A DNA stretch of 53,126 nucleotides from Thermoplasmata archaeon (GTDB taxonomy: Archaea > Thermoplasmatota > Thermoplasmata > Methanomassiliicoccales > Methanomethylophilaceae). The notes below the pieces were generated by a model that saw only the letters and a list, made by a program, of their open reading frames with translations, had not been told where the DNA came from and did not search any database. A program made the translations under genes and the position numbers. Positions 1 to 7,841 of the stretch are shown here, piece after piece. The stretch is taken from positions 100,517 through 153,642 of the forward strand of contig SUSZ01000002.1 of assembly GCA_015063165.1 (NCBI GenBank), in the 5' to 3' direction. Every line of letters starts with the position of its first letter. The stretch's first letter is position 1.

Positions 1-5
1 GAACG

Positions 6-44
6 AGAAGGGAATGGAAGGGCTGGTCTCCTCTCCCTGATTTG
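6..44. repeat. Left att-like repeat of the putative integrated element
   Basis: Two blocks seen here recur in the same order at the tRNA-Tyr 3' end: AGAAGGGAATGG (6-17, again 7719-7730) and CTCCCTGATTTG (33-44, again 7737-7748). Bases just before the second block also match imperfectly. The left copy carries about 8 extra bases between the blocks. The second block is the T-arm sequence of the tRNA. A copy of a tRNA 3' end beside an integrase remnant is the usual footprint of tRNA-targeted integration. That this is an att site is inference. Confidence 0.5.
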
Positions 45-80
45 TTGACGCGCTGGTCGTTGGGGAAGCGGGGACCATGG

Positions 81-488
81 TCACTTCCTCCTGGTGAGGT
101 CGTACTGGTAGGCGTACATCCTGGACAGCGCGGCGCCCATGTCGTCGAGGTCTATGCCCAGGTAGCGGATCGTCGTCTTGACGTCCTCGTGGCCGAGCAG
201 CTTCGCTATGGTCTCGATCGGTATGCCCGCGCGGTATGTGGTGCGGCCGAAGGTCCTGCGGAGGGTGTGGTTGGAGAAGCGGAACCCGAGGCGCTCGGAC
301 AGCTTGTGCATGACCGCGCGGTCGATGCTGTGCCCCCTGTCGGTGTAGGGCGCGGCCGTGGGGCTCTTGTTGTAGTGGCACCAGAACAGGAGCTCGTCTG
401 GATCCCTCCACGTGCAGCACGAGGACGTCCGAGGCCATCCTGTCGTCATTAGGCGATGTCTTGGGCATACATCCCCTTCATGTATCAA
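81..488 (-). pseudogene. Tyrosine recombinase/integrase, C-terminal remnant
   Basis: The frame holds the C-terminal catalytic half of a phage-type tyrosine recombinase. HTLRR supplies the His-x-x-Arg motif, LGHED the second conserved His, and TIRYLG the nucleophilic Tyr. The first catalytic Arg and the whole N-terminal and core-binding domains are missing; intact family members usually have 280-400 residues. The first 30 or so residues are not integrase-like. In a neighbouring frame an ATG near 474 begins MPKTSPNDDRMASDVLVLHVEG, which would join the conserved part after a one-base shift near 405-420. The gene is therefore truncated and probably frameshifted. Its stop lies 37 bases from the left att-like repeat, as expected for an element integrase. 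The recombinase identity is well supported; loss of function is inference. Confidence 0.7.
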
Positions 489-1491
489 AAAGGCGGGAAA
501 TTAAATGATCGCGTTTTCGTGAGAGGGGACGTCGTTGAAGAATCTTTACAAGGGCAAAGAAAAGCTTCCCTGACGTCTGGCCTTCCTGAATGACGCACCT
601 ACCTCGACTGGACCGTGTCCTCGCTTGCCTTCCAGCCGTCTCCTTCAACAGACGCTTGCACTCGCTGTAGATGGAGTCCACGGACTCCAAGGTGATGCAG
701 CCCTCGTCCGGGCGGATGGGAACGAGGCCCAGGCCGCCGGAGAGACATTCGAAGTCCGCATCGAAGGATTCTGCATCTACAAGTCCGACGTCCACCTTGA
801 GGGACGTCCGTATGCCGCCCGTCGCAAGCATCCAGCGGACTACATCCATCTCGTTACGGATCCCATGCTGCTCCCTTACGCCCTCCGGGACGTCGTCGAG
901 TGTGAACGACAACGCCCCGCTCCTCACGAAATCCACCAGGTGGTACGTGATGGCAGGGGTCAGATAGAACGCGTCGCCGTATCTCGCCCTGGCCTCCATA
1001 TATCTCCTGCAACTCCCGAAAGCCACGCATGCGCAGTCATGGCATACGGCCCCGTCGTCCCCCCTGTATACCGCGGCGGGCTTGAGCCCCATGTTCTTGC
1101 ACCATTCGGATACGTCCCAACCGGCGTTTCCGCACTGGCAGTAATACACGCCCAGGACGTCTACGAAGGGCTGCATGTCCGTTATCTCCTCCTCGATCTT
1201 TGCTTTGAGGACCGCGGGATTCCCGTGAAGGCCGAGATTGTTGGAGCGGACGACCACGGTCATGCCCTCTTCCCGCCTGCATGCGACGCCGGAATCGAAT
1301 TCCGATTCTGGCATGGACCTGAAGGGCAGGCCGGCACGGGACATCTTGTCGCACAGCTCCTGGGAATAATCGTTCGTCAGAATCAGGACATCATCGACCT
1401 CGCCGTCGCCCTTCAGATTGTGGACGAGCTCGTCGTTGAAAACGGGGCATACGATGATTCCTAAGACGGCGGCGCCGGTTTCGATCTTCAT
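478..1491 (-). CDS. DUF1638-like cysteine-rich protein
   Basis: A 337-residue protein of unknown function. The central part resembles the DUF1638 family: YYCQCGNAGWD, then a cysteine cluster (HDCACVAFGSCRRY) and a YLTPAI motif, with the Gly-Cys-His pattern that suggests metal or corrinoid binding. In methanogens this family often lies near corrinoid-dependent methyltransferase genes; none is seen here. I start it at the Met at 1491, behind GAGGTGAGAGC and about 39 bases below a TATA box at 1530-1538; the open frame extends upstream to 1554. The last 50 residues are basic and look unrelated to the family, so the 3' end may be altered. It lies between the integrase remnant and the metal importer. 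The family assignment is from motif memory and is moderately sure. Confidence 0.6.
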   Translation of the reverse strand: MKIETGAAVLGIIVCPVFNDELVHNLKGDGEVDDVLILTNDYSQELCDKMSRAGLPFRSMPESEFDSGVACRREEGMTVVVRSNNLGLHGNPAVLKAKIEEEITDMQPFVDVLGVYYCQCGNAGWDVSEWCKNMGLKPAAVYRGDDGAVCHDCACVAFGSCRRYMEARARYGDAFYLTPAITYHLVDFVRSGALSFTLDDVPEGVREQHGIRNEMDVVRWMLATGGIRTSLKVDVGLVDAESFDADFECLSGGLGLVPIRPDEGCITLESVDSIYSECKRLLKETAGRQARTRSSRGRCVIQEGQTSGKLFFALVKILQRRPLSRKRDHLISRLFDT

Positions 1492-1529
1492 GCTCTCACC
1501 TCGGAACGTTTCGGCGCTCTTCCAGCGGG

Positions 1530-1538
1530 TATATAAAA
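1530..1538 (-). promoter_or_regulatory. TATA box of the DUF1638-like gene
   Basis: Reads TTTTATATA on the minus strand, about 39 bases upstream of the chosen ATG at 1491, which gives a short leader containing GAGGTGAG. Confidence 0.45.
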
Positions 1539-1623
1539 CAGAACCGGCCGGCACGCAATTATGGGGCTAATGGCCGATTCCAGCCGTATATGAACGGAAC
1601 CATTATTGGCATATCAATCCAAA

Positions 1624-1633
1624 CTTTATAAAC
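1624..1633 (+). promoter_or_regulatory. TATA box of the metal-chelate ABC operon
   Basis: CTTTATAAAC lies about 35 bases before the TTG at 1666 and 75 before the ATG at 1705. Transcription would start near 1653. Confidence 0.45.
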
Positions 1634-1665
1634 GGGAAACCGAGAAGTCCTTTCAGGGATAGGCG

Positions 1666-2784
1666 TTGGTCGGGACTCCGCACGAGCTGACAGTCGAAGA
1701 GGCTATGGAGATATGGTCTTCGCCGTTGGAAGAGGGCAGAAGCCAAGCCGTCAAGGCGGGATACGCTCGCTCGGTCAGGACGAAGGTTCTCTTCATCTTC
1801 GCATGCATGTCAGCCCTGCTGGCGTCCCTGATATGTGCGGTCGGATTCGGTCCGGTCGACATCGGGCTGCTCGACTCTGTACGGATCCTGATCGATCACC
1901 TCACGGGAAACGTCCAGGACGAGATCTACGACCATTTCGTATGGGAGGGGCGCCTTCCCAGGGGGCTCCTGGGAGCTCTGACGGGGGCCGGCCTCGCGAT
2001 CGGCGGATGCGTAATGCAGAGCACGCTCAACAACGGCCTGGCGGACTCATACACGACCGGGATATCGGCCGGCGCTGGCTTCGGAGCGACGCTGGCCTTC
2101 ACGGTCGGCCTCACCTTGGCGACCGGGATGTACGCCATAGTGTTCAACGCCTTCGTGTTCTCGCTAGTCCCCACCATGGCGATCCTGCTGATATCCCGGC
2201 TCAAGGGCGGATCCCCCCTGGTCATGGTCATGTCCGGGATTGCGATGATGTATCTCTTCAACGCCATGTCCGCCATATTCAAGATCATGGCCGACCCCAA
2301 CGACCTGGCGGCGCTGTACGCCTGGCAGCTGGGATCCGTCAGCTCCTGCTCCTGGGAAGACATCGCCCTGGTGTTCGTCACAGTGACGCTATGTGGCTTC
2401 GCCCTCCAGGCCCTCGCATCACGCATCAACCTGCTGTCGGCAGGCGACGACTATGCCAGGTCCATGGGCGTCCGCGTGACAGCCCTCCGCAACGCATGCC
2501 TCATCATAGTGACCTTGATGACCGCGATCCTTGTGAGCTTCACCGGCCTCATCGGATTCGTGGGGCTGGTGGCCCCCCACATCTGCAGGATATTCATCGG
2601 CGCGGACAACAGGTACCTCCTCGCGGCATCGGCGGCAATGGGCGCGCTGGTCGTCGTGGCGGCGGATACCGCCGGCAAGGTGCTGTTCCAGCCCTACGAG
2701 CTCCAGGTGGGAATAATAACGGCGTTCCTAGGGGCGCCGCTGTTCCTCTATCTGATAGTCAAGACCAAGAAGACGTCGTGGTGA
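1666..2784 (+). CDS. FecCD/BtuC-type ABC permease (iron-siderophore, heme or cobalamin)
   Basis: A polytopic inner-membrane permease of the FecCD family, 372 residues with about nine to ten hydrophobic segments. Family signatures are LPRGLLGALTGAGLAIGG with VMQS, the DSYTTGIS segment, and the late GLIGFVGLVAPHICR loop that contacts the ATPase. It would import a ferric-siderophore, heme or cobalamin-like ligand with the ATPase at 2789 and the binding protein at 4634. The start is uncertain: TTG at 1666 follows the TATA box closely, while ATG at 1705 follows GAAGAGG. The gap to the ATPase is 4 bases, so they share a transcript. The substrate cannot be read from sequence; iron-chelate is favoured by the AraC-type neighbour. 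Confidence 0.9.
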   Translation: MVGTPHELTVEEAMEIWSSPLEEGRSQAVKAGYARSVRTKVLFIFACMSALLASLICAVGFGPVDIGLLDSVRILIDHLTGNVQDEIYDHFVWEGRLPRGLLGALTGAGLAIGGCVMQSTLNNGLADSYTTGISAGAGFGATLAFTVGLTLATGMYAIVFNAFVFSLVPTMAILLISRLKGGSPLVMVMSGIAMMYLFNAMSAIFKIMADPNDLAALYAWQLGSVSSCSWEDIALVFVTVTLCGFALQALASRINLLSAGDDYARSMGVRVTALRNACLIIVTLMTAILVSFTGLIGFVGLVAPHICRIFIGADNRYLLAASAAMGALVVVAADTAGKVLFQPYELQVGIITAFLGAPLFLYLIVKTKKTSW

Positions 2785-2788
2785 CCAG

Positions 2789-3568
2789 ATGAAGATAGCG
2801 ATAGACTCCCTGACGTGCGGTTACGACGAATCTCATCCGGTCCTTCGGGACATCAACCTCGAATTCGATTCGGACGACGGCCTGATATGCATAATCGGTC
2901 CGAACGGGGTCGGGAAGTCCACCTTGATTAGATGCATCGACGACCTGGTCCGTCCGACGAAGGGCAGAGTGACGCTGGACGGCAGGGACGTCAGGGAAAT
3001 GTCGAGGAGGGAGCTCGCCGAGAGGATAGGCTACGTCCAGGCCATTTCCGCATCCCATGGTTCCATGACGGTGTTCGAGACGGTATCCATGGGGAGGTAC
3101 AACAGGATGGGATGGAGGATGAGGGCCGAAGACCTTGACGTCATAGACAAGGCCATGTCCGTCATGGGACTAGGACCGCTGGGCGGAAGGCCGGCCGACG
3201 AGCTCTCCGCGGGGCAGTTCCAGAAGATGATGATAGCCAGGGGGCTGGCCCAATGCACGGACGTCCTGATACTCGACGAGCCGACGTCCAATCTGGACAT
3301 ACGGGCTCAGATGTTCGTGGCGTGCCTGCTGAGACGGCTCTGCAGGACGGACAAGAAGATCGTGCTGATGATCTGTCACGACGTGAACATAGCCGCCAAG
3401 GTGGCCGACAAGATACTGATCCTGTCCAAGCCAGGAAAGGTGCTCGCGTTCGGAACCCCTGGCGAGGTCGTGAACAAGGAGAACATCAGGGAGGCTTACG
3501 GCGTGGACTGCGACATAACGGAGCACGAGGGGAGGCCCGCCGTCCTCATCCGCTCCGATTCGGTGTGA
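2789..3568 (+). CDS. FecE/BtuD-type ABC transporter ATPase
   Basis: Cytoplasmic ATPase of the metal-chelate importer, 259 residues, normal for the family. Walker A is GPNGVGKST (about residue 37), the Q-loop region follows, the ABC signature is LSAGQFQ, Walker B is LILDEP with a D-loop SNLD, and the switch His lies in ICHDVN. It starts 4 bases after the permease. Its 3' end overlaps the convergent AraC-type gene by 23 bases. A close paralogue sits at 38589. Family is certain; substrate is inferred from the neighbouring genes. Confidence 0.93.
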   Translation: MKIAIDSLTCGYDESHPVLRDINLEFDSDDGLICIIGPNGVGKSTLIRCIDDLVRPTKGRVTLDGRDVREMSRRELAERIGYVQAISASHGSMTVFETVSMGRYNRMGWRMRAEDLDVIDKAMSVMGLGPLGGRPADELSAGQFQKMMIARGLAQCTDVLILDEPTSNLDIRAQMFVACLLRRLCRTDKKIVLMICHDVNIAAKVADKILILSKPGKVLAFGTPGEVVNKENIREAYGVDCDITEHEGRPAVLIRSDSV

Positions 3569-4511
3569 CCAGCGGATTTCCGAACTCCTTGTCGAAATGC
3601 TTTGGCCTGAAGCCGAACTCCTTCCTGAAGGCCGTGGCGAACTTGTTCTCCTTGCCGTACCCGGCTGATTCGGACACGGCTTTCATGCTCCTCTCGCCCA
3701 GAAGCATCCGGCTCCCTGCCGTTATGAGGCGGTAATGCCTCTGCAGGGAGTAGGGCGTATCGCCGTAGACCTTCTTGAATCCTCTGCTGATCCCGTACTT
3801 GTCCGCCCCTATCTCCTCGCAGATTCCGTTTATGCTGGGGACGACGCCGAGATCGAACATGATTCTGGAGTAAAGCTCGTCTTCGAGCCTCGTGTCTTCG
3901 GACCCGCGGATCTCAGAGAACCTCGGCCCGTCGCTTTCATACAGCCTGCGGACCAGGTCCGATACGAGAACGGCCACGACATCGTCATCCACGGAGTCGG
4001 GATCGTCGAGGAGGGACTTCAACGCATACAGCTCCATCATCATGTCGTTGTCCAGGATGAACGGATCCATGCTGTCCATACGGTATCTGGCGCATATGTT
4101 GTCGAGGACGACGGAGACGTCGGGAAGATCGTCCAGCCCGATTGGCCTGAACCCGTTCAGATCCAGGCCTATCGACAGGCCGATGTAGCGCATGGTCGGA
4201 ATGCGTATGTGCTCCCTCCGGCTAGACGGATGGTGGATGATGCCCATCCCTTGGATTCTGGATCTGATCGAGTTTTCCTGCCTGGCGACGTACCTCCCCA
4301 TCAGAGTCGCATTGATCATCAGGTAGTTCATGCTCCCGATGCGGTCCTGGTTCGTGAAGTAGGCGGTGCTCATATCGAAGAAGTTGATCACGAACCCCCT
4401 GTCGAATACGAAGTTGGTGACCCTGGCGCATCCGTCGTCCAGCTTCATCTCGTACACCCTGCCCCTGCCGATAGGCCTGCTGACGAAATCGTTGAAGACC
4501 CTGATTTCCAT
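3546..4511 (-). CDS. AraC-family transcriptional regulator
   Basis: The last 100 residues form an AraC-type double helix-turn-helix: a first helix pair around SINGICEEIGADKYGISRGFKKVYG, written here in parts (SINGICEEIGA and ISRGFKKVYG), and the conserved second half AVSESAGYGKENKFATAFRK, followed by GFRPKHF. The N-terminal 200 residues look like the ligand-sensing part of PchR-like regulators of siderophore or heme uptake. I use the Met at 4511 (321 residues); an upstream start at 4580 would add 23. It is divergent from the binding protein gene and converges on the ATPase gene, so control of this importer is the natural inference. AraC regulators are rare in archaea, which suggests acquisition from bacteria with the element. 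Confidence 0.8.
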   Translation of the reverse strand: MEIRVFNDFVSRPIGRGRVYEMKLDDGCARVTNFVFDRGFVINFFDMSTAYFTNQDRIGSMNYLMINATLMGRYVARQENSIRSRIQGMGIIHHPSSRREHIRIPTMRYIGLSIGLDLNGFRPIGLDDLPDVSVVLDNICARYRMDSMDPFILDNDMMMELYALKSLLDDPDSVDDDVVAVLVSDLVRRLYESDGPRFSEIRGSEDTRLEDELYSRIMFDLGVVPSINGICEEIGADKYGISRGFKKVYGDTPYSLQRHYRLITAGSRMLLGERSMKAVSESAGYGKENKFATAFRKEFGFRPKHFDKEFGNPLVTPNRSG

Positions 4512-4579
4512 GAGTTCGGCCGTCCGATATGGCATCCTGCAATAAAAACAGAACCATAATTGCGCATCTTTTGTCATCA

Positions 4580-4607
4580 TTAAATAATCAGACCGGCGGG
4601 TCGACCT
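4580..4607. promoter_or_regulatory. Divergent promoter/operator region between araC-type and binding protein genes
   Basis: ATTAAATAAT at 4580-4589 can serve as a TATA box in either direction. GACCGGCGGGTC (4591-4602) is an inverted repeat with GACC/GGTC arms, overlapped by the palindrome GGTCGACC (4599-4606). An AraC-type operator here is inference only. Confidence 0.3.
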
Positions 4608-4633
4608 ATAGGATGGAACATCCGAGTGATTGA

Positions 4634-5929
4634 ATGGACAAGAAGATAGTGATCGCTGCGATCGTCGTGATCGCATTGATAGCCGTGGCCGCGGCGGCGC
4701 TCCTGATGCTGCCGAAGGATTCCACCGACATGTCCTCCAAGACCGACGACATCCGCGTGACGATATTCGGCAACGCCAACGGAGACGATGTGATCGACGA
4801 GAAGGACAAGAAGATAATCGAGAAGATAGCGGCGGACGACATCAACGATTGGAAATCCAAATACATGTACGCCGATGCTAACCAGGACGGGAAGATCACA
4901 TCGGCAGATGCGGACGTCGTCCAGAAGTACATCGACAGGAAGCCGACGACCCTCTACTACAAGGATTACTTCGGGACCGTCGCCCACGTGCCGTACCCGA
5001 TAGGCAACAAAGTCGGGGTCGACCACCCGTATCCCGCCTTCATCATGGCCGCCGCAGGAGTCTACGACAGGCTCGTGGCCGTGGACGACGCCAGCCCGAT
5101 GTACTACGACGATTCCGTCCTTCCCGGGCTCAGCAAGATGAAGATCATCGGCAGCAGCACCAAGATCACGCTCGAACAGGTGGCCGCCGCAGGAGTCGAC
5201 GCGTTCATAATCTATTCCAACTGGTCGGGACACTGCTACCTCTACGACGAGGCGGAGAAATCTGGCCTGGCGAACAGGATCGCGTTCATCTCGGTCGATA
5301 TCCAGCAGCTGGACGGCGCCTCCGGAACCCTCATGGTAGGCGCCCTGTTCAACACGGGCGACTCGGTCAGCAAGTCCCTGGACTACGCGAGCAAGATAGA
5401 CAAGATAAAGGACAAGCTGGACGGAATGAACGTCGCCAAGAAGACGGTCATATTCGACTACATCGCGAAGTGGGGGTCGGACTACTACCAGTACATCGCC
5501 GGAGGGGCGGCCAACATCGTCTCCAAGAAGGCGGTGAAGTTCACTGCGGCATATGAGAACGCCGGAAACATAATGGTGGACGAGGAGACCCTGGTCGCCG
5601 CCAGCAAGGGCGTACCGATAATCATACAGTTCCAGACGCCCTCCGACGTCGAAAGGACGAGTATGGACGCCTACCTGAAAGAACGCATCCAGTCCATGCT
5701 CACCAAGACCGACGCCTATGCCGACAAGGAGATCTACGCCATAGACAGCGACATCATCAACGGGGTGTCGGGAGCCTATTTCGGAGCCTACCTGACCGCC
5801 GCCATGCTTTACGATTCCGTGGACTACGACGACGCCGTCAAGGATCTGGAATACTTCCTGAAGAACTTCCTCCCTTCGAAGGTGAACTCCAGCAAAGGCT
5901 ATGCGTACACGAACAAAGAGCTGTCATGA
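4634..5929 (+). CDS. Metal-chelate ABC substrate-binding protein with an N-terminal dockerin-like domain
   Basis: A 431-residue surface protein. Residues 4-28 are a hydrophobic signal/anchor segment. Residues about 45-105 hold two dockerin-type calcium-binding repeats, GNANGDDVIDEKD and ADANQDGKITSAD, each followed by a helix. The rest is a periplasmic-binding-protein type 2 fold (TroA/FepB class): LVAVDDA, then the VAAAGVDAFIIYS strand and loop, and a helical backbone linking two lobes. It should deliver its ligand to the permease at 1666. It is separated from that operon by the reversed AraC-type gene and has its own promoter. The Ca-binding repeats could attach it to a cohesin-like partner or simply act as a folded spacer. 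Binding-protein and dockerin calls are firm; the ligand is unknown. Confidence 0.85.
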   Translation: MDKKIVIAAIVVIALIAVAAAALLMLPKDSTDMSSKTDDIRVTIFGNANGDDVIDEKDKKIIEKIAADDINDWKSKYMYADANQDGKITSADADVVQKYIDRKPTTLYYKDYFGTVAHVPYPIGNKVGVDHPYPAFIMAAAGVYDRLVAVDDASPMYYDDSVLPGLSKMKIIGSSTKITLEQVAAAGVDAFIIYSNWSGHCYLYDEAEKSGLANRIAFISVDIQQLDGASGTLMVGALFNTGDSVSKSLDYASKIDKIKDKLDGMNVAKKTVIFDYIAKWGSDYYQYIAGGAANIVSKKAVKFTAAYENAGNIMVDEETLVAASKGVPIIIQFQTPSDVERTSMDAYLKERIQSMLTKTDAYADKEIYAIDSDIINGVSGAYFGAYLTAAMLYDSVDYDDAVKDLEYFLKNFLPSKVNSSKGYAYTNKELS

Positions 5930-5960
5930 CCGTTTTAGTCAAGACATGAAAAACGACTTA

Positions 5961-5978
5961 CCTCACCTACGGGTGAGG
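5961..5978 (+). terminator. Hairpin after the binding protein gene
   Basis: CCTCACC at 5961-5967 pairs with GGTGAGG at 5972-5978 across a 4-base loop, 32 bases after the TGA. There is no clean T run, so this is a likely 3'-end hairpin, not a proven terminator. Confidence 0.4.
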
Positions 5979-6083
5979 AACCCCCGCCATCGCGACATCG
6001 CAGGAAAGGGAACGGACTGAAAAATCGAGCCGGACAAGAGAAGGAAAGGCTTGGGGCGTTCGGCCCCGGAGTTTTGGAAAAGG

Positions 6084-6323
6084 TCATAAAGGCACCTCTT
6101 GAGACTTGCCCTCCCGACTCTTCAATTCCTCGGACACCTGGTCGACGTCGTACAGGTTGACCGCGATCACGTAGCTGACGCCTGCGCCCTGCTCCGCGCC
6201 CATGAACTCCTTCGTCTCCTTGTCGTAGAATCCGACATGGGTGGTGGAGGAGTGCCCTATGGTCTGTCCGAACGGCAGGGTGACCGCATCGACGGTGCAT
6301 TCCCCTCCGCCTGGGCCGCCCAT
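6084..6323 (-). CDS. Small hypothetical protein, possible gene fragment
   Basis: The part of this frame from the Met at 6323 encodes 79 residues with protein-like composition (VTLPFGQTIGHSSTTHVGFY, then YVIAVNLYDVDQ). The upstream extension to 6431 is Arg/Pro/Gly-rich and looks non-coding. I do not recognise the family, there is no ribosome-binding site, and it may be a remnant carried by the integrated element. It is followed downstream by the hairpin at 5961. The stretch from 5930 to 6518 otherwise shows nothing I can name. Confidence 0.3.
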   Translation of the reverse strand: MGGPGGGECTVDAVTLPFGQTIGHSSTTHVGFYDKETKEFMGAEQGAGVSYVIAVNLYDVDQVSEELKSREGKSQEVPL

Positions 6324-6518
6324 GGGCCATCGGATGGGATGGGAAAGCGCGTCCGCGCGCCGGCGCCCCTGGCCCTGCGGGCAGGCGGGGCTTCCTCCGC
6401 GCGTCCGCGATTGACAATTGCGAAAGGACATCGGTTATCCGCTGATGAAAATAGATGGCTGCAGCTAAGAGGGCAGAAAAAGGAATAGATGTTGAAAAGA
6501 AGAACGACAGGTCGAGCG

Positions 6519-7676
6519 TTAAGAGTTGGGTGTGTTGTCAACAAGCCCCAGTCTTATGCAGGCCTGGATGAGATTGAATTCCTGTTCGGTTATGGTTTTC
6601 ACGAGCTTCCATGGAGACTTCTCTTCCGATTTGGGTTCAGGTAGCAGACCTATCCGGTCCTTGAATCCCTTCCCGAAGGACACGTCCCTCGTCCTGAAGC
6701 ACTTGTTCCCGAGATGCGTGAAGAGCATCGTGCGGAGGCCCTTGTCCTTGACGGAAGAGATGTCTGGGAGGTCCTTGATGGCGCTCTTGCCGTTCTCGGT
6801 GAGGCACTTGACGAGGTACTTGAAAGCGTAGGAGACGGTGTCCTTCCCCGACCTGGATCCGTTGCCCTTGACGATGCCCTCGAAGTCGATGAAGCCATGT
6901 TTCCAGATCGGGTTCATCCGTATGGCTTTGCGGTGGTCTGTCCTGCAGAGCCTCCTCATGAGTGGCCCCTTCCCGATCCTGTCGAGGATGCGGGGGTCGC
7001 AGATCCTCCATGATTCCTTCTCTCCCCTTCCGCTGTGCCTCTCGACCATCACGGGCTCGTCCAGCAGGAAGATCAGGTGCGGGGCAGGGTAGCCGGAGGA
7101 CTGGGCCTCCTTGGATACGAGGGTCCCATGCTTGCCGAATATCTTGCTGATGTTGGCGTTCAGGTTGTTCAGGACGTTGTACTCGTATTCAGCCCCCTCG
7201 GTGGGGGTGGACCGGAGGGCTGCCCAGGCCTCCTCCGCCGCGTACTGCTCGCGGTCGAAGTTGACGGTGGTGAGCAGGAGCCTGGTGTACCTCCTGTTGC
7301 GGAAGCCCTTCACCGGTACGTCGAATTCCTTACCATCCAGCGCAGCTTCGATCTCGTTCCTCCTCTTGGACTTCCTAGTTGCGTAGACCTTGTTGCCCCT
7401 CTTGGCTGAAAGCGCATAGACAAACTCCCCCGTGTCCTGGTTGAGAAAAACGTTGCGGTCCTCGGATTCGATCCAATCCAGAAGGACCGCTTGGAGGTAA
7501 GGGTCGTCGAGGGTCATCCGTCCGGCCACCAGGTCGCGGATGAGCTCATTGGGGTCGAAGGGCCAGTCCCCGCCGTTGCAAGTGCGGCGGCGGATCTTCC
7601 TGACGCCCTCAAGGACCCCCTCGAAGAAGAGCTTTCCAAGGCTGTTGAGAGCACCATACGAAGTGGTACTCGTCAA
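6519..7676 (-). CDS. Putative rolling-circle (HUH-like) replication initiator
   Basis: A 385-residue protein with basic and aromatic composition. Two features resemble Rep endonucleases of small archaeal plasmids and viruses: GYPAPHLIFLLDEP matches the strand carrying motif 2, with only one of the two usual His, and YAFKYLVKCL matches the motif 3 Tyr-x-x-Lys helix. A CRTDH segment lies between them. No ATG is available: the frame begins at a TTG at 7676 and stays open upstream into the tRNA-Tyr 3' end, so the 5' end may have been cut by integration. It ends in TAA, unlike most genes here. A Rep at one end and an integrase at the other fits an integrated plasmid or virus. The assignment rests on weak motifs. 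Confidence 0.45.
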   Translation of the reverse strand: MTSTTSYGALNSLGKLFFEGVLEGVRKIRRRTCNGGDWPFDPNELIRDLVAGRMTLDDPYLQAVLLDWIESEDRNVFLNQDTGEFVYALSAKRGNKVYATRKSKRRNEIEAALDGKEFDVPVKGFRNRRYTRLLLTTVNFDREQYAAEEAWAALRSTPTEGAEYEYNVLNNLNANISKIFGKHGTLVSKEAQSSGYPAPHLIFLLDEPVMVERHSGRGEKESWRICDPRILDRIGKGPLMRRLCRTDHRKAIRMNPIWKHGFIDFEGIVKGNGSRSGKDTVSYAFKYLVKCLTENGKSAIKDLPDISSVKDKGLRTMLFTHLGNKCFRTRDVSFGKGFKDRIGLLPEPKSEEKSPWKLVKTITEQEFNLIQACIRLGLVDNTPNS

Positions 7677-7700
7677 ATCGGAGCCCGAAATGGTACTCGT
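7664..7700. repeat. Short direct repeat at the rep-like gene 5' end
   Basis: TGGTACTCGT occurs at 7664-7673 and again at 7691-7700, each preceded by GAAG/GAAA. Repeats next to a rep start can be initiator-binding sites; with only two copies this is weak. Confidence 0.3.
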
Positions 7701-7718
7701 GACGAAATCAGGGGAGCC

Positions 7719-7748
7719 AGAAGGGAATGGTCCCCACTCCCTGATTTG
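7719..7748. repeat. Right att-like repeat overlapping the tRNA-Tyr 3' end
   Basis: AGAAGGGAATGG (7719-7730) abuts the tRNA 3' terminus and CTCCCTGATTTG (7737-7748) is its T arm. Both blocks recur at 6-44. This would be the attachment site kept with the intact tRNA. Confidence 0.5.
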
Positions 7749-7841
7749 AACAGGGGGCCTGCTGATTTCAGCGGCTGTATCGGATTTTCTTCCGAAAACA
7801 CTCTACAGTCAGCCGCTCTGGCCAGTCTGAGCTAAGTGGGG
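7731..7841 (-). tRNA. tRNA-Tyr (GTA) with a 36-base intron
   Basis: Exon 1 is 7803-7841: acceptor CCCCACT, D arm GCTC/GAGC, anticodon stem GCTGA and loop CTGTAG. Exon 2 is 7731-7766: stem TCAGC, T arm CCCTG-TTCAAAT-CAGGG and acceptor AGTGGGG with discriminator A. Every acceptor, anticodon and T-stem pair matches. The intron (7767-7802) lies at the canonical 37/38 position. Its TACAGCCGC pairs with GCGGCTG and the anticodon CTGTA, giving a bulge-helix-bulge for the splicing endonuclease. CCA is not encoded. The element to the left appears to have integrated at its 3' end. Confidence 0.95.

What the first reader, a model, noticed from the sequence alone, without database searches (positions are those of the whole stretch)
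1..7750. Decayed 7.7 kb element integrated at tRNA-Tyr
Two 12-base blocks in the same order (6-17 and 33-44; 7719-7730 and 7737-7748) flank an integrase remnant on the left and a Rep-like gene on the right. The right copy is the tRNA-Tyr 3' end. Two matched blocks are very unlikely by chance. Inside lie a metal-chelate importer, an AraC regulator and a DUF1638-like gene, so the element may have brought iron acquisition into this methanogen.
Basis: partly seen in the sequence, partly recalled or inferred. Interest (0 to 1): 0.7.

Follow-up and report, generated by a model that had tools for sequence, protein, structure and literature searches.

The report
Mosaic integrated element at tRNA-Tyr
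A small plasmid-like element once inserted itself into a tyrosine tRNA gene of a gut methanogen, and its middle has since been replaced by a 5.9-kb piece of another species' chromosome carrying a nutrient-uptake system; this is an ordinary kind of mobile DNA, but its patchwork can be read to the base.

Summary
A tRNA-Tyr gene with a 36-nt intron lies at 7728-7841 (minus strand). Its 3' end is repeated, decayed, at 24-44, and an integrase remnant and a Rep gene lie just inside the two repeats. Relatives in the genus show int-to-rep elements between the same repeats at the same tRNA, and at least one shows an empty site. Rep is a rolling-circle-type HUH protein by Pfam and by a good structural model.

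The cargo story needs correcting. Window 404-6311 (DUF1638 gene, FecCD/ABC importer, AraC regulator, dockerin-bearing lipoprotein, stump of an S41 peptidase) is not the normal interior of these elements. It is 97% identical to a relative's contig (G001:C2) that lacks int and rep and keeps the S41 gene whole, while the two genomes' backbones are only about 71-78% identical. The left junction is an 11-bp sequence shared by the integrase gene and the foreign segment. So 1-7750 is a mosaic: integrase end, recently transferred chromosomal segment, Rep end. It is probably fixed, because the integrase has lost its N-terminal two thirds. "Brought iron acquisition" is unsupported: the substrate is unknown and paralogous importers are many. 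Whether the segment moved with the element or was spliced in locally is open.

The parts
24..44 (+). decayed distal att copy (tRNA-Tyr 3' end; relatives read TGGTCCCCACTCCCTGATTTG); outer block 6-17 matches 7719-7730
   Evidence: G026 carries the undecayed version before the same int end (95% over 18-414)
81..410 (-). integrase remnant: C-terminal 109 aa of a tyrosine recombinase of about 320 aa, keeping HxxR, GH and Tyr, lacking the N-terminal domain and first catalytic Arg
404..414 (.). left junction: 11-bp sequence CCCTCCACGTG shared by the integrase gene (G026) and the foreign segment (G001)
404..6311 (.). transferred chromosomal segment, 97% identical to G001:C2:5685-11587
   Evidence: backbone identity only about 71-78%
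478..1491 (-). DUF1638 gene
   Evidence: PF07796, 2.3e-14; 95% aa in G001
1666..2784 (+). FecCD/BtuC-type ABC permease
   Evidence: PF01032, 9.2e-81; dN 0.006, dS 0.092 against G001
2789..3568 (+). ABC ATPase of the same importer
3546..4580 (-). AraC-type regulator (HTH_18)
   Evidence: 344-aa orthologue in G001
4634..5929 (+). putative substrate-binding lipoprotein with a dockerin-like stretch; binding-protein role inferred from position beside the importer
   Evidence: 98% in G001, 90% in G011
6084..6311 (-). stump (C-terminal end) of an S41-family peptidase gene that is 658 codons long in G001
6312..7730 (.). Rep module: 93% to G000:C48, 89% to G026:C9; truncated by some tens of bp at its inner end relative to those copies
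6330..6440 (.). non-coding patch downstream of rep, 97% conserved between copies whose Rep modules are 89-93% identical; candidate replication origin (inferred)
   Evidence: predicted fold no stronger than shuffles
6519..7676 (-). rep: rolling-circle-type HUH replication protein, 385 aa, intact
7728..7748 (-). tRNA-proximal att core = last 21 nt of tRNA-Tyr including CCA
7728..7841 (-). tRNA-Tyr(GTA) with 36-nt intron (about 7769-7804), intact

Best explanation
Region 1-7750 is an integrated, now probably immobile, plasmid-like element at the 3' end of tRNA-Tyr whose interior has been swapped for foreign chromosomal DNA. The parent element was a small int...rep element of a family found in this genus (7.3 kb in the complete copy at G000:C48). 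Its tyrosine recombinase joined an attP matching the last 21 nt of tRNA-Tyr to the tRNA, leaving a whole tRNA on one side and a copy of its 3' end on the other. An HUH Rep presumably replicated the excised circle by rolling circle. Later, illegitimate recombination at a short shared sequence on the left, and an untidy join in the Rep module's non-coding end on the right, replaced the element's middle (integrase N-terminus and usual cargo) by 5.9 kb from a G001-like lineage. That segment carries an ABC importer that has been under purifying selection since the two copies split. Shown: repeats, tRNA, family of intact relatives, empty site, block boundaries, identity contrast. Inferred: order of events, rolling-circle replication, loss of mobility, importer function.
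For: tRNA-Tyr 3' end repeated. Same layout core-int-...-rep-core-tRNA in G026, G024, G013 and G014, and a complete copy with intact int and rep between direct repeats at G000:C48. G005 has tRNA-Tyr beside the antiporter with one core and no int or rep. Window 18-414 is 95% identical to the G026 int end; 404-6311 is 97% identical to G001:C2; 6315-7750 is 93% identical to C48. G001 keeps the S41 gene whole, without int or rep. Backbone identity G000-G001 is about 71-78% against 97% in the segment; dS 0.055-0.092, dN 0.003-0.010. No other genus member searched has the composite. Rep: 19 of 26 family members hit PF23343, 5 hit RepSA of pSAM2; a model with pLDDT 86 matches HUH Reps.
Against: The two element ends have different nearest relatives (int end G026; rep end C48, then G026), so they may come from two elements. 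The place of G001:C2 in its genome is unknown: G001's tRNA-Tyr was not found in its contigs, and one gene at the end of that contig (EamA) lies about 8.5 kb from tRNA-Tyr in G006, so the segment could be an old tRNA-Tyr neighbour in other species. G001 is a draft genome, and a misbinned contig is possible. DNA on the far side of the left core is also absent from G005, so 7.7 kb is only part of a roughly 15-kb variable zone. No reads were available to confirm the junctions.
Confidence: 0.66

Rival explanations
1. The foreign segment was already part of a variable island downstream of tRNA-Tyr. A Rep element inserted at the tRNA and a second element further out; two ordinary deletions then fused the rep end to the S41 gene and the int end to the DUF1638 side. 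The two ends never belonged to one element.
For: The zone next to tRNA-Tyr is variable among the genomes seen and holds tandem elements or several cores (G014, G013, G007, G006). EamA, next to S41 in G001, lies about 8.5 kb from tRNA-Tyr in G006. The nearest relatives of the two ends differ.
Against: Needs two elements and two deletions instead of one element and one replacement; G026 holds both ends in one element at the same place and in the same order. No relative shows the segment beside tRNA-Tyr.
Confidence: 0.22
2. One reading: the importer genes are the element's own cargo and the element carried them into this methanogen as a mobile unit.
For: They lie between the two att copies; the segment is recently transferred; importer genes are intact and under purifying selection.
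Against: The segment's limits cut through the integrase gene and an S41 gene; no other element of the family examined carries the importer; the G001 copy has no element ends; the integrase is truncated.
Confidence: 0.08
3. An assembly chimera: the contig joins unrelated pieces at 404-414 and 6311-6315.
For: G000 is a draft of 67 contigs; element parts are repeated in the genome (C32, C48, C6).
Against: 11 bp is shorter than any usual assembly overlap; the segment differs by 3% from G001 and the Rep module by 7% from C48, so neither is a plain copy of those sequences; the region lies well inside a 153-kb contig.
Confidence: 0.04

Closest known systems
Archaeal integrated elements with classical (type II) tyrosine recombinases at tRNA 3' ends (reviewed in PMC8371274; thaumarchaeal cryptic integrated elements, PMC6563490)
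   Same: att = tRNA 3' end, tRNA left intact, integrase gene at one end and whole in the integrated state (in intact relatives), tandem arrays, restriction-modification cargo, intron-bearing tRNA targets
   Different: HUH Rep family with no match in the plasmid and phage collections searched; here the interior is replaced by chromosomal DNA and the integrase is truncated; hosts are Methanomethylophilaceae
32-kb excising mobile element of ISO4-H5 (Methanomassiliicoccales; PMC5011839)
   Same: integrase, cytosine methyltransferases and a DNA mismatch endonuclease, as in the intact tRNA-Tyr elements seen here
   Different: about four times larger; whether it carries this Rep or uses tRNA-Tyr was not checked
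pSAM2-type actinomycete integrative elements (RepSA, PF20199)
   Same: integration at a tRNA plus a rolling-circle Rep (from general knowledge of pSAM2); 5 of 26 Rep relatives hit PF20199 weakly
   Different: no conjugation gene recognised among the ORFs seen; archaeal; shorter
SNJ2 / Rep-Arvir elements (PMC13107129)
   Same: archaeal, integrative, conserved non-coding element just downstream of rep proposed as origin
   Different: Rep-Arvir has a Rep_trans-like fold (DUF7845); this Rep matches HUH folds and no member hit that family

Membership tests
tRNA-integrated archaeal element, classical tyrosine recombinase | direct repeat of the tRNA 3' end bounding the element, tRNA left whole | tested here: met
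tRNA-integrated archaeal element, classical tyrosine recombinase | integrase gene next to one repeat and intact in the integrated state | tested here: inconclusive
   met in intact relatives (C48, G024, G013, G014); in the window only the last 109 aa remain
tRNA-integrated archaeal element, classical tyrosine recombinase | empty site in a relative | tested here: met
   G005
tRNA-integrated archaeal element, classical tyrosine recombinase | excision or integration activity | not testable with these tools
   needs PCR across the joined site or reads
SSV-type (suicidal) integrative element | integrase gene split by the att site, halves at both ends | tested here: not met
   complete integrase gene ends at one core in C48; window breakpoint is a junction with foreign DNA, not att
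HUH rolling-circle Rep | HUH fold | tested here: met
   model pLDDT 86.1; most of the leading PDB matches are HUH Reps or nucleases, best Z 7.4 (2x3g), 6.9 (7vg8), 6.6 (7lcc); 27 viral matches at E below 0.001; Z alone is middling
HUH rolling-circle Rep | His-x-His metal motif and Tyr motif | tested here: inconclusive
   invariant GYPxxH and YxxKYxxK; the first His of the pair is Ala in most members (GYPAPH) but His in a distant member (GYPHIH, L070)
HUH rolling-circle Rep | nicking activity at an origin | not testable with these tools
   biochemistry needed
Rep-Arvir (SNJ2) | DUF7845 / PF25227 domain | tested here: not met
   none of 26 members hit it at E up to 1
iron-chelate importer | substrate specificity for iron chelates | tested here: inconclusive
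   best NCBIfam matches are F420-0, BtuC and FhuB/FecC families, all far below cut-off

The most novel reading that the evidence does not exclude
These small HUH-Rep elements at tRNA-Tyr pick up chromosomal segments by short-homology recombination and carry them between species of gut methanogens, so that the 97%-identical importer reached this genome as element cargo and not by a separate route.
Probability: 0.15. Interest if true: 0.6.

Novelty: new member of a known kind. Interest (0 to 1): 0.4.

Why it matters
It shows at base-pair level how an integrated archaeal element can be taken apart and refilled with another species' chromosomal DNA, and it points to a family of small integrative Rep elements in Methanomethylophilaceae (gut and rumen methanogens) that I did not find described in the papers searched. 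Intact members could be tried as integration vectors at tRNA-Tyr.

Tried and rejected
GC and GC3 as signs of foreign origin: flat (0.58), no use. Default ARAGORN and Rfam gathering scans: no tRNA found, presumably because of the intron. Structure of Rep from 11 close sequences: pLDDT 45, discarded; 26 diverse sequences gave 86. Rep relatives in viral contigs, plasmids and phages: none found. Left-junction DNA in viral contigs: none. Idea that cargo exchange happens at one fixed seam downstream of rep: rejected, since C48, G026 and C6 share some tens of bp more than the window copy. Hairpin in the conserved patch: fold no better than shuffles (z 0.04). Idea that the left junction cuts a known gene: the G001 frame there stops after 39 codons, so only the right-hand truncation (S41) is claimed. 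Remains of int or rep in the 36 kb left of the window: none convincing.

Full report
What is there. The window is G000:C32:100517-153642 of a draft genome of 67 contigs. The relatives that could be named are Candidatus Methanomethylophilaceae and other Methanomassiliicoccales drafts, among them sheep-rumen RGIG6908 (G026). The right-hand pair belongs to tRNA-Tyr(GTA), which has a 36-nt intron and lies at c7728-7841; it is seen only when introns are allowed. The repeat equals the last 21 nt of the tRNA, CCA included. The left copy matches it at 19 of 21 positions, and the score of the repeat was not reached in 2,000 simulations.

A family of elements. The same 20-21 bp core occurs at tRNA-Tyr and again some kilobases away in several relatives, and between the two cores lie, in constant order from the tRNA, a rep gene, variable cargo and an integrase gene reading into the distal core. 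G026 has int (frameshifted), a small AbrB-like gene (named from its sequence, no family model match), a MutH-type gene, a C5 methyltransferase and rep; G014 and G024 add Vsr-type genes; G014 and G013 hold tandem arrays. G000 itself holds a complete 7.3-kb copy on another contig (C48; L030:4608-11909) with a 385-aa Rep and a 330-aa integrase, between direct cores but not beside a tRNA. In G005, tRNA-Tyr lies about 0.8 kb from an antiporter gene with a single core and no int or rep; in G000 the same two features are about 15 kb apart. So 7.7 kb of that difference is the region in question, and the rest is further variable DNA left of the window. Relatives of the Rep also sit near tRNA-Lys, tRNA-Ser, tRNA-Met, tRNA-Leu and tRNA-Gly genes.

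The Rep. The window protein alone hits no curated family at the usual cut-off. Scanning 26 relatives one by one gave PF23343 (REP_ORF2-G2P) for 19 of them, best 3.3e-7, and RepSA of pSAM2 for 5. A model from these sequences has pLDDT 86 and pTM 0.84. The leading PDB matches are mostly HUH replication nucleases: SIRV1 ORF119, begomovirus Rep, Helitron, AAV Rep, RepB of pMV158. Twenty-seven viral models match at E below 0.001, several of them named replication proteins. Conserved GYPxxH and YxxKYxxK motifs fit, though the first histidine of the pair is alanine in most members and histidine in a distant one. I take it as an HUH Rep; activity is not shown.

The mosaic. Aligning the window with each relative gave three blocks that abut. 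Window 18-414 is 95% identical to the int end of the G026 element. Window 404-6311 is 97% identical to G001:C2:5685-11587. Window 6315-7750 is 93% identical to C48 and, over 6315-7597, 89% identical to G026. The first two blocks overlap by 11 bp, CCCTCCACGTG. In G001 there is no int or rep, and the gene at the right-hand limit is a whole S41-type peptidase of 658 codons, of which the window keeps only the end (6084-6311). The integrase keeps its last 109 residues with HxxR, GH and Tyr and lacks the rest. G000 and G001 are otherwise only about 71-78% identical over the long matches in the 20 kb compared, apart from one 0.5-kb match at 90%. In the segment dS is 0.055-0.092 and dN 0.003-0.010 for the importer, regulator and lipoprotein genes. 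The segment is therefore a recent transfer whose genes have been under purifying selection, and its ends do not coincide with element ends. The importer genes also occur at 84% in G011 and 72% in G019, without the DUF1638 or S41 genes in the same short contigs.

How it most likely works. An int...rep element entered the tRNA-Tyr site by site-specific recombination, leaving a whole tRNA. Its middle was later replaced by foreign chromosomal DNA through illegitimate recombination, with short shared sequence on the left. The truncated integrase and decayed left core suggest that it can no longer excise by itself; help from another integrase, such as that of C48 (46% identical over the shared part), cannot be excluded. 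The chief rival is that two elements and two deletions enclosed a segment that already lay in the variable zone; EamA, next to S41 in G001 and about 8.5 kb from tRNA-Tyr in G006, keeps it alive.

Comparison with what is known. Integration at tRNA 3' ends, intron-bearing targets, tandem arrays, module exchange and capture of elements by att or integrase decay are all described for archaea (PMC8371274, PMC6563490). A 32-kb element with integrase, methyltransferases and mismatch endonuclease was seen to excise in ISO4-H5 (PMC5011839). So the kind is known; this is a new member with a well-resolved history. The iron-acquisition claim fails: matches are to F420-0, cobalamin and siderophore permeases alike, all far below cut-off, and paralogues are numerous.

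Noticed in passing
L030:4608-11909 (G000:C48): Complete 7.3-kb element with intact int and rep between direct cores, not beside a tRNA, so perhaps a secondary site; a second, decayed element (L030:12019-15534) follows directly.
   Followed up: partly
L033, L036, L042, L048: Cargo of the intact tRNA-Tyr elements is mostly DNA methyltransferase, MutH-type or other restriction-like genes and Vsr.
   Followed up: partly
L113-L117, L120, L136-L139, L147, L148: Relatives of the Rep lie near tRNA-Lys(CTT), tRNA-Ser, tRNA-Met, tRNA-Leu and tRNA-Gly genes, often with an integrase gene beside the tRNA: one Rep family, several target sites.
   Followed up: partly
window 6330-6440: Non-coding patch downstream of rep more conserved (97%) than the Rep module as a whole (89-93%); possible origin, but its predicted fold is no stronger than shuffles.
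   Followed up: partly
alignment A2; L070:1525-2847: Most Reps of this family have Ala for the first His of the HUH pair (GYPAPH), while the distant L070 has GYPHIH; whether the former still bind metal is open.
   Followed up: no
L149:10894-12742 (G006) and L034 (G007): An AAA/DUF4143-like ATPase gene sits between two cores at tRNA-Tyr in G006; three cores occur in G007 around similar genes without a recognised integrase.
   Followed up: no
L109:1-186: A stretch of about 165 bp at the end of the G001 contig recurs at 97-99% at the starts of other G001 contigs and at 79-92% in relatives: an unidentified repeat.
   Followed up: no
window 4634-5929: The importer-linked lipoprotein carries a dockerin-like stretch (residues 49-100); this genome has 17 matches to the protein.
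   Followed up: no
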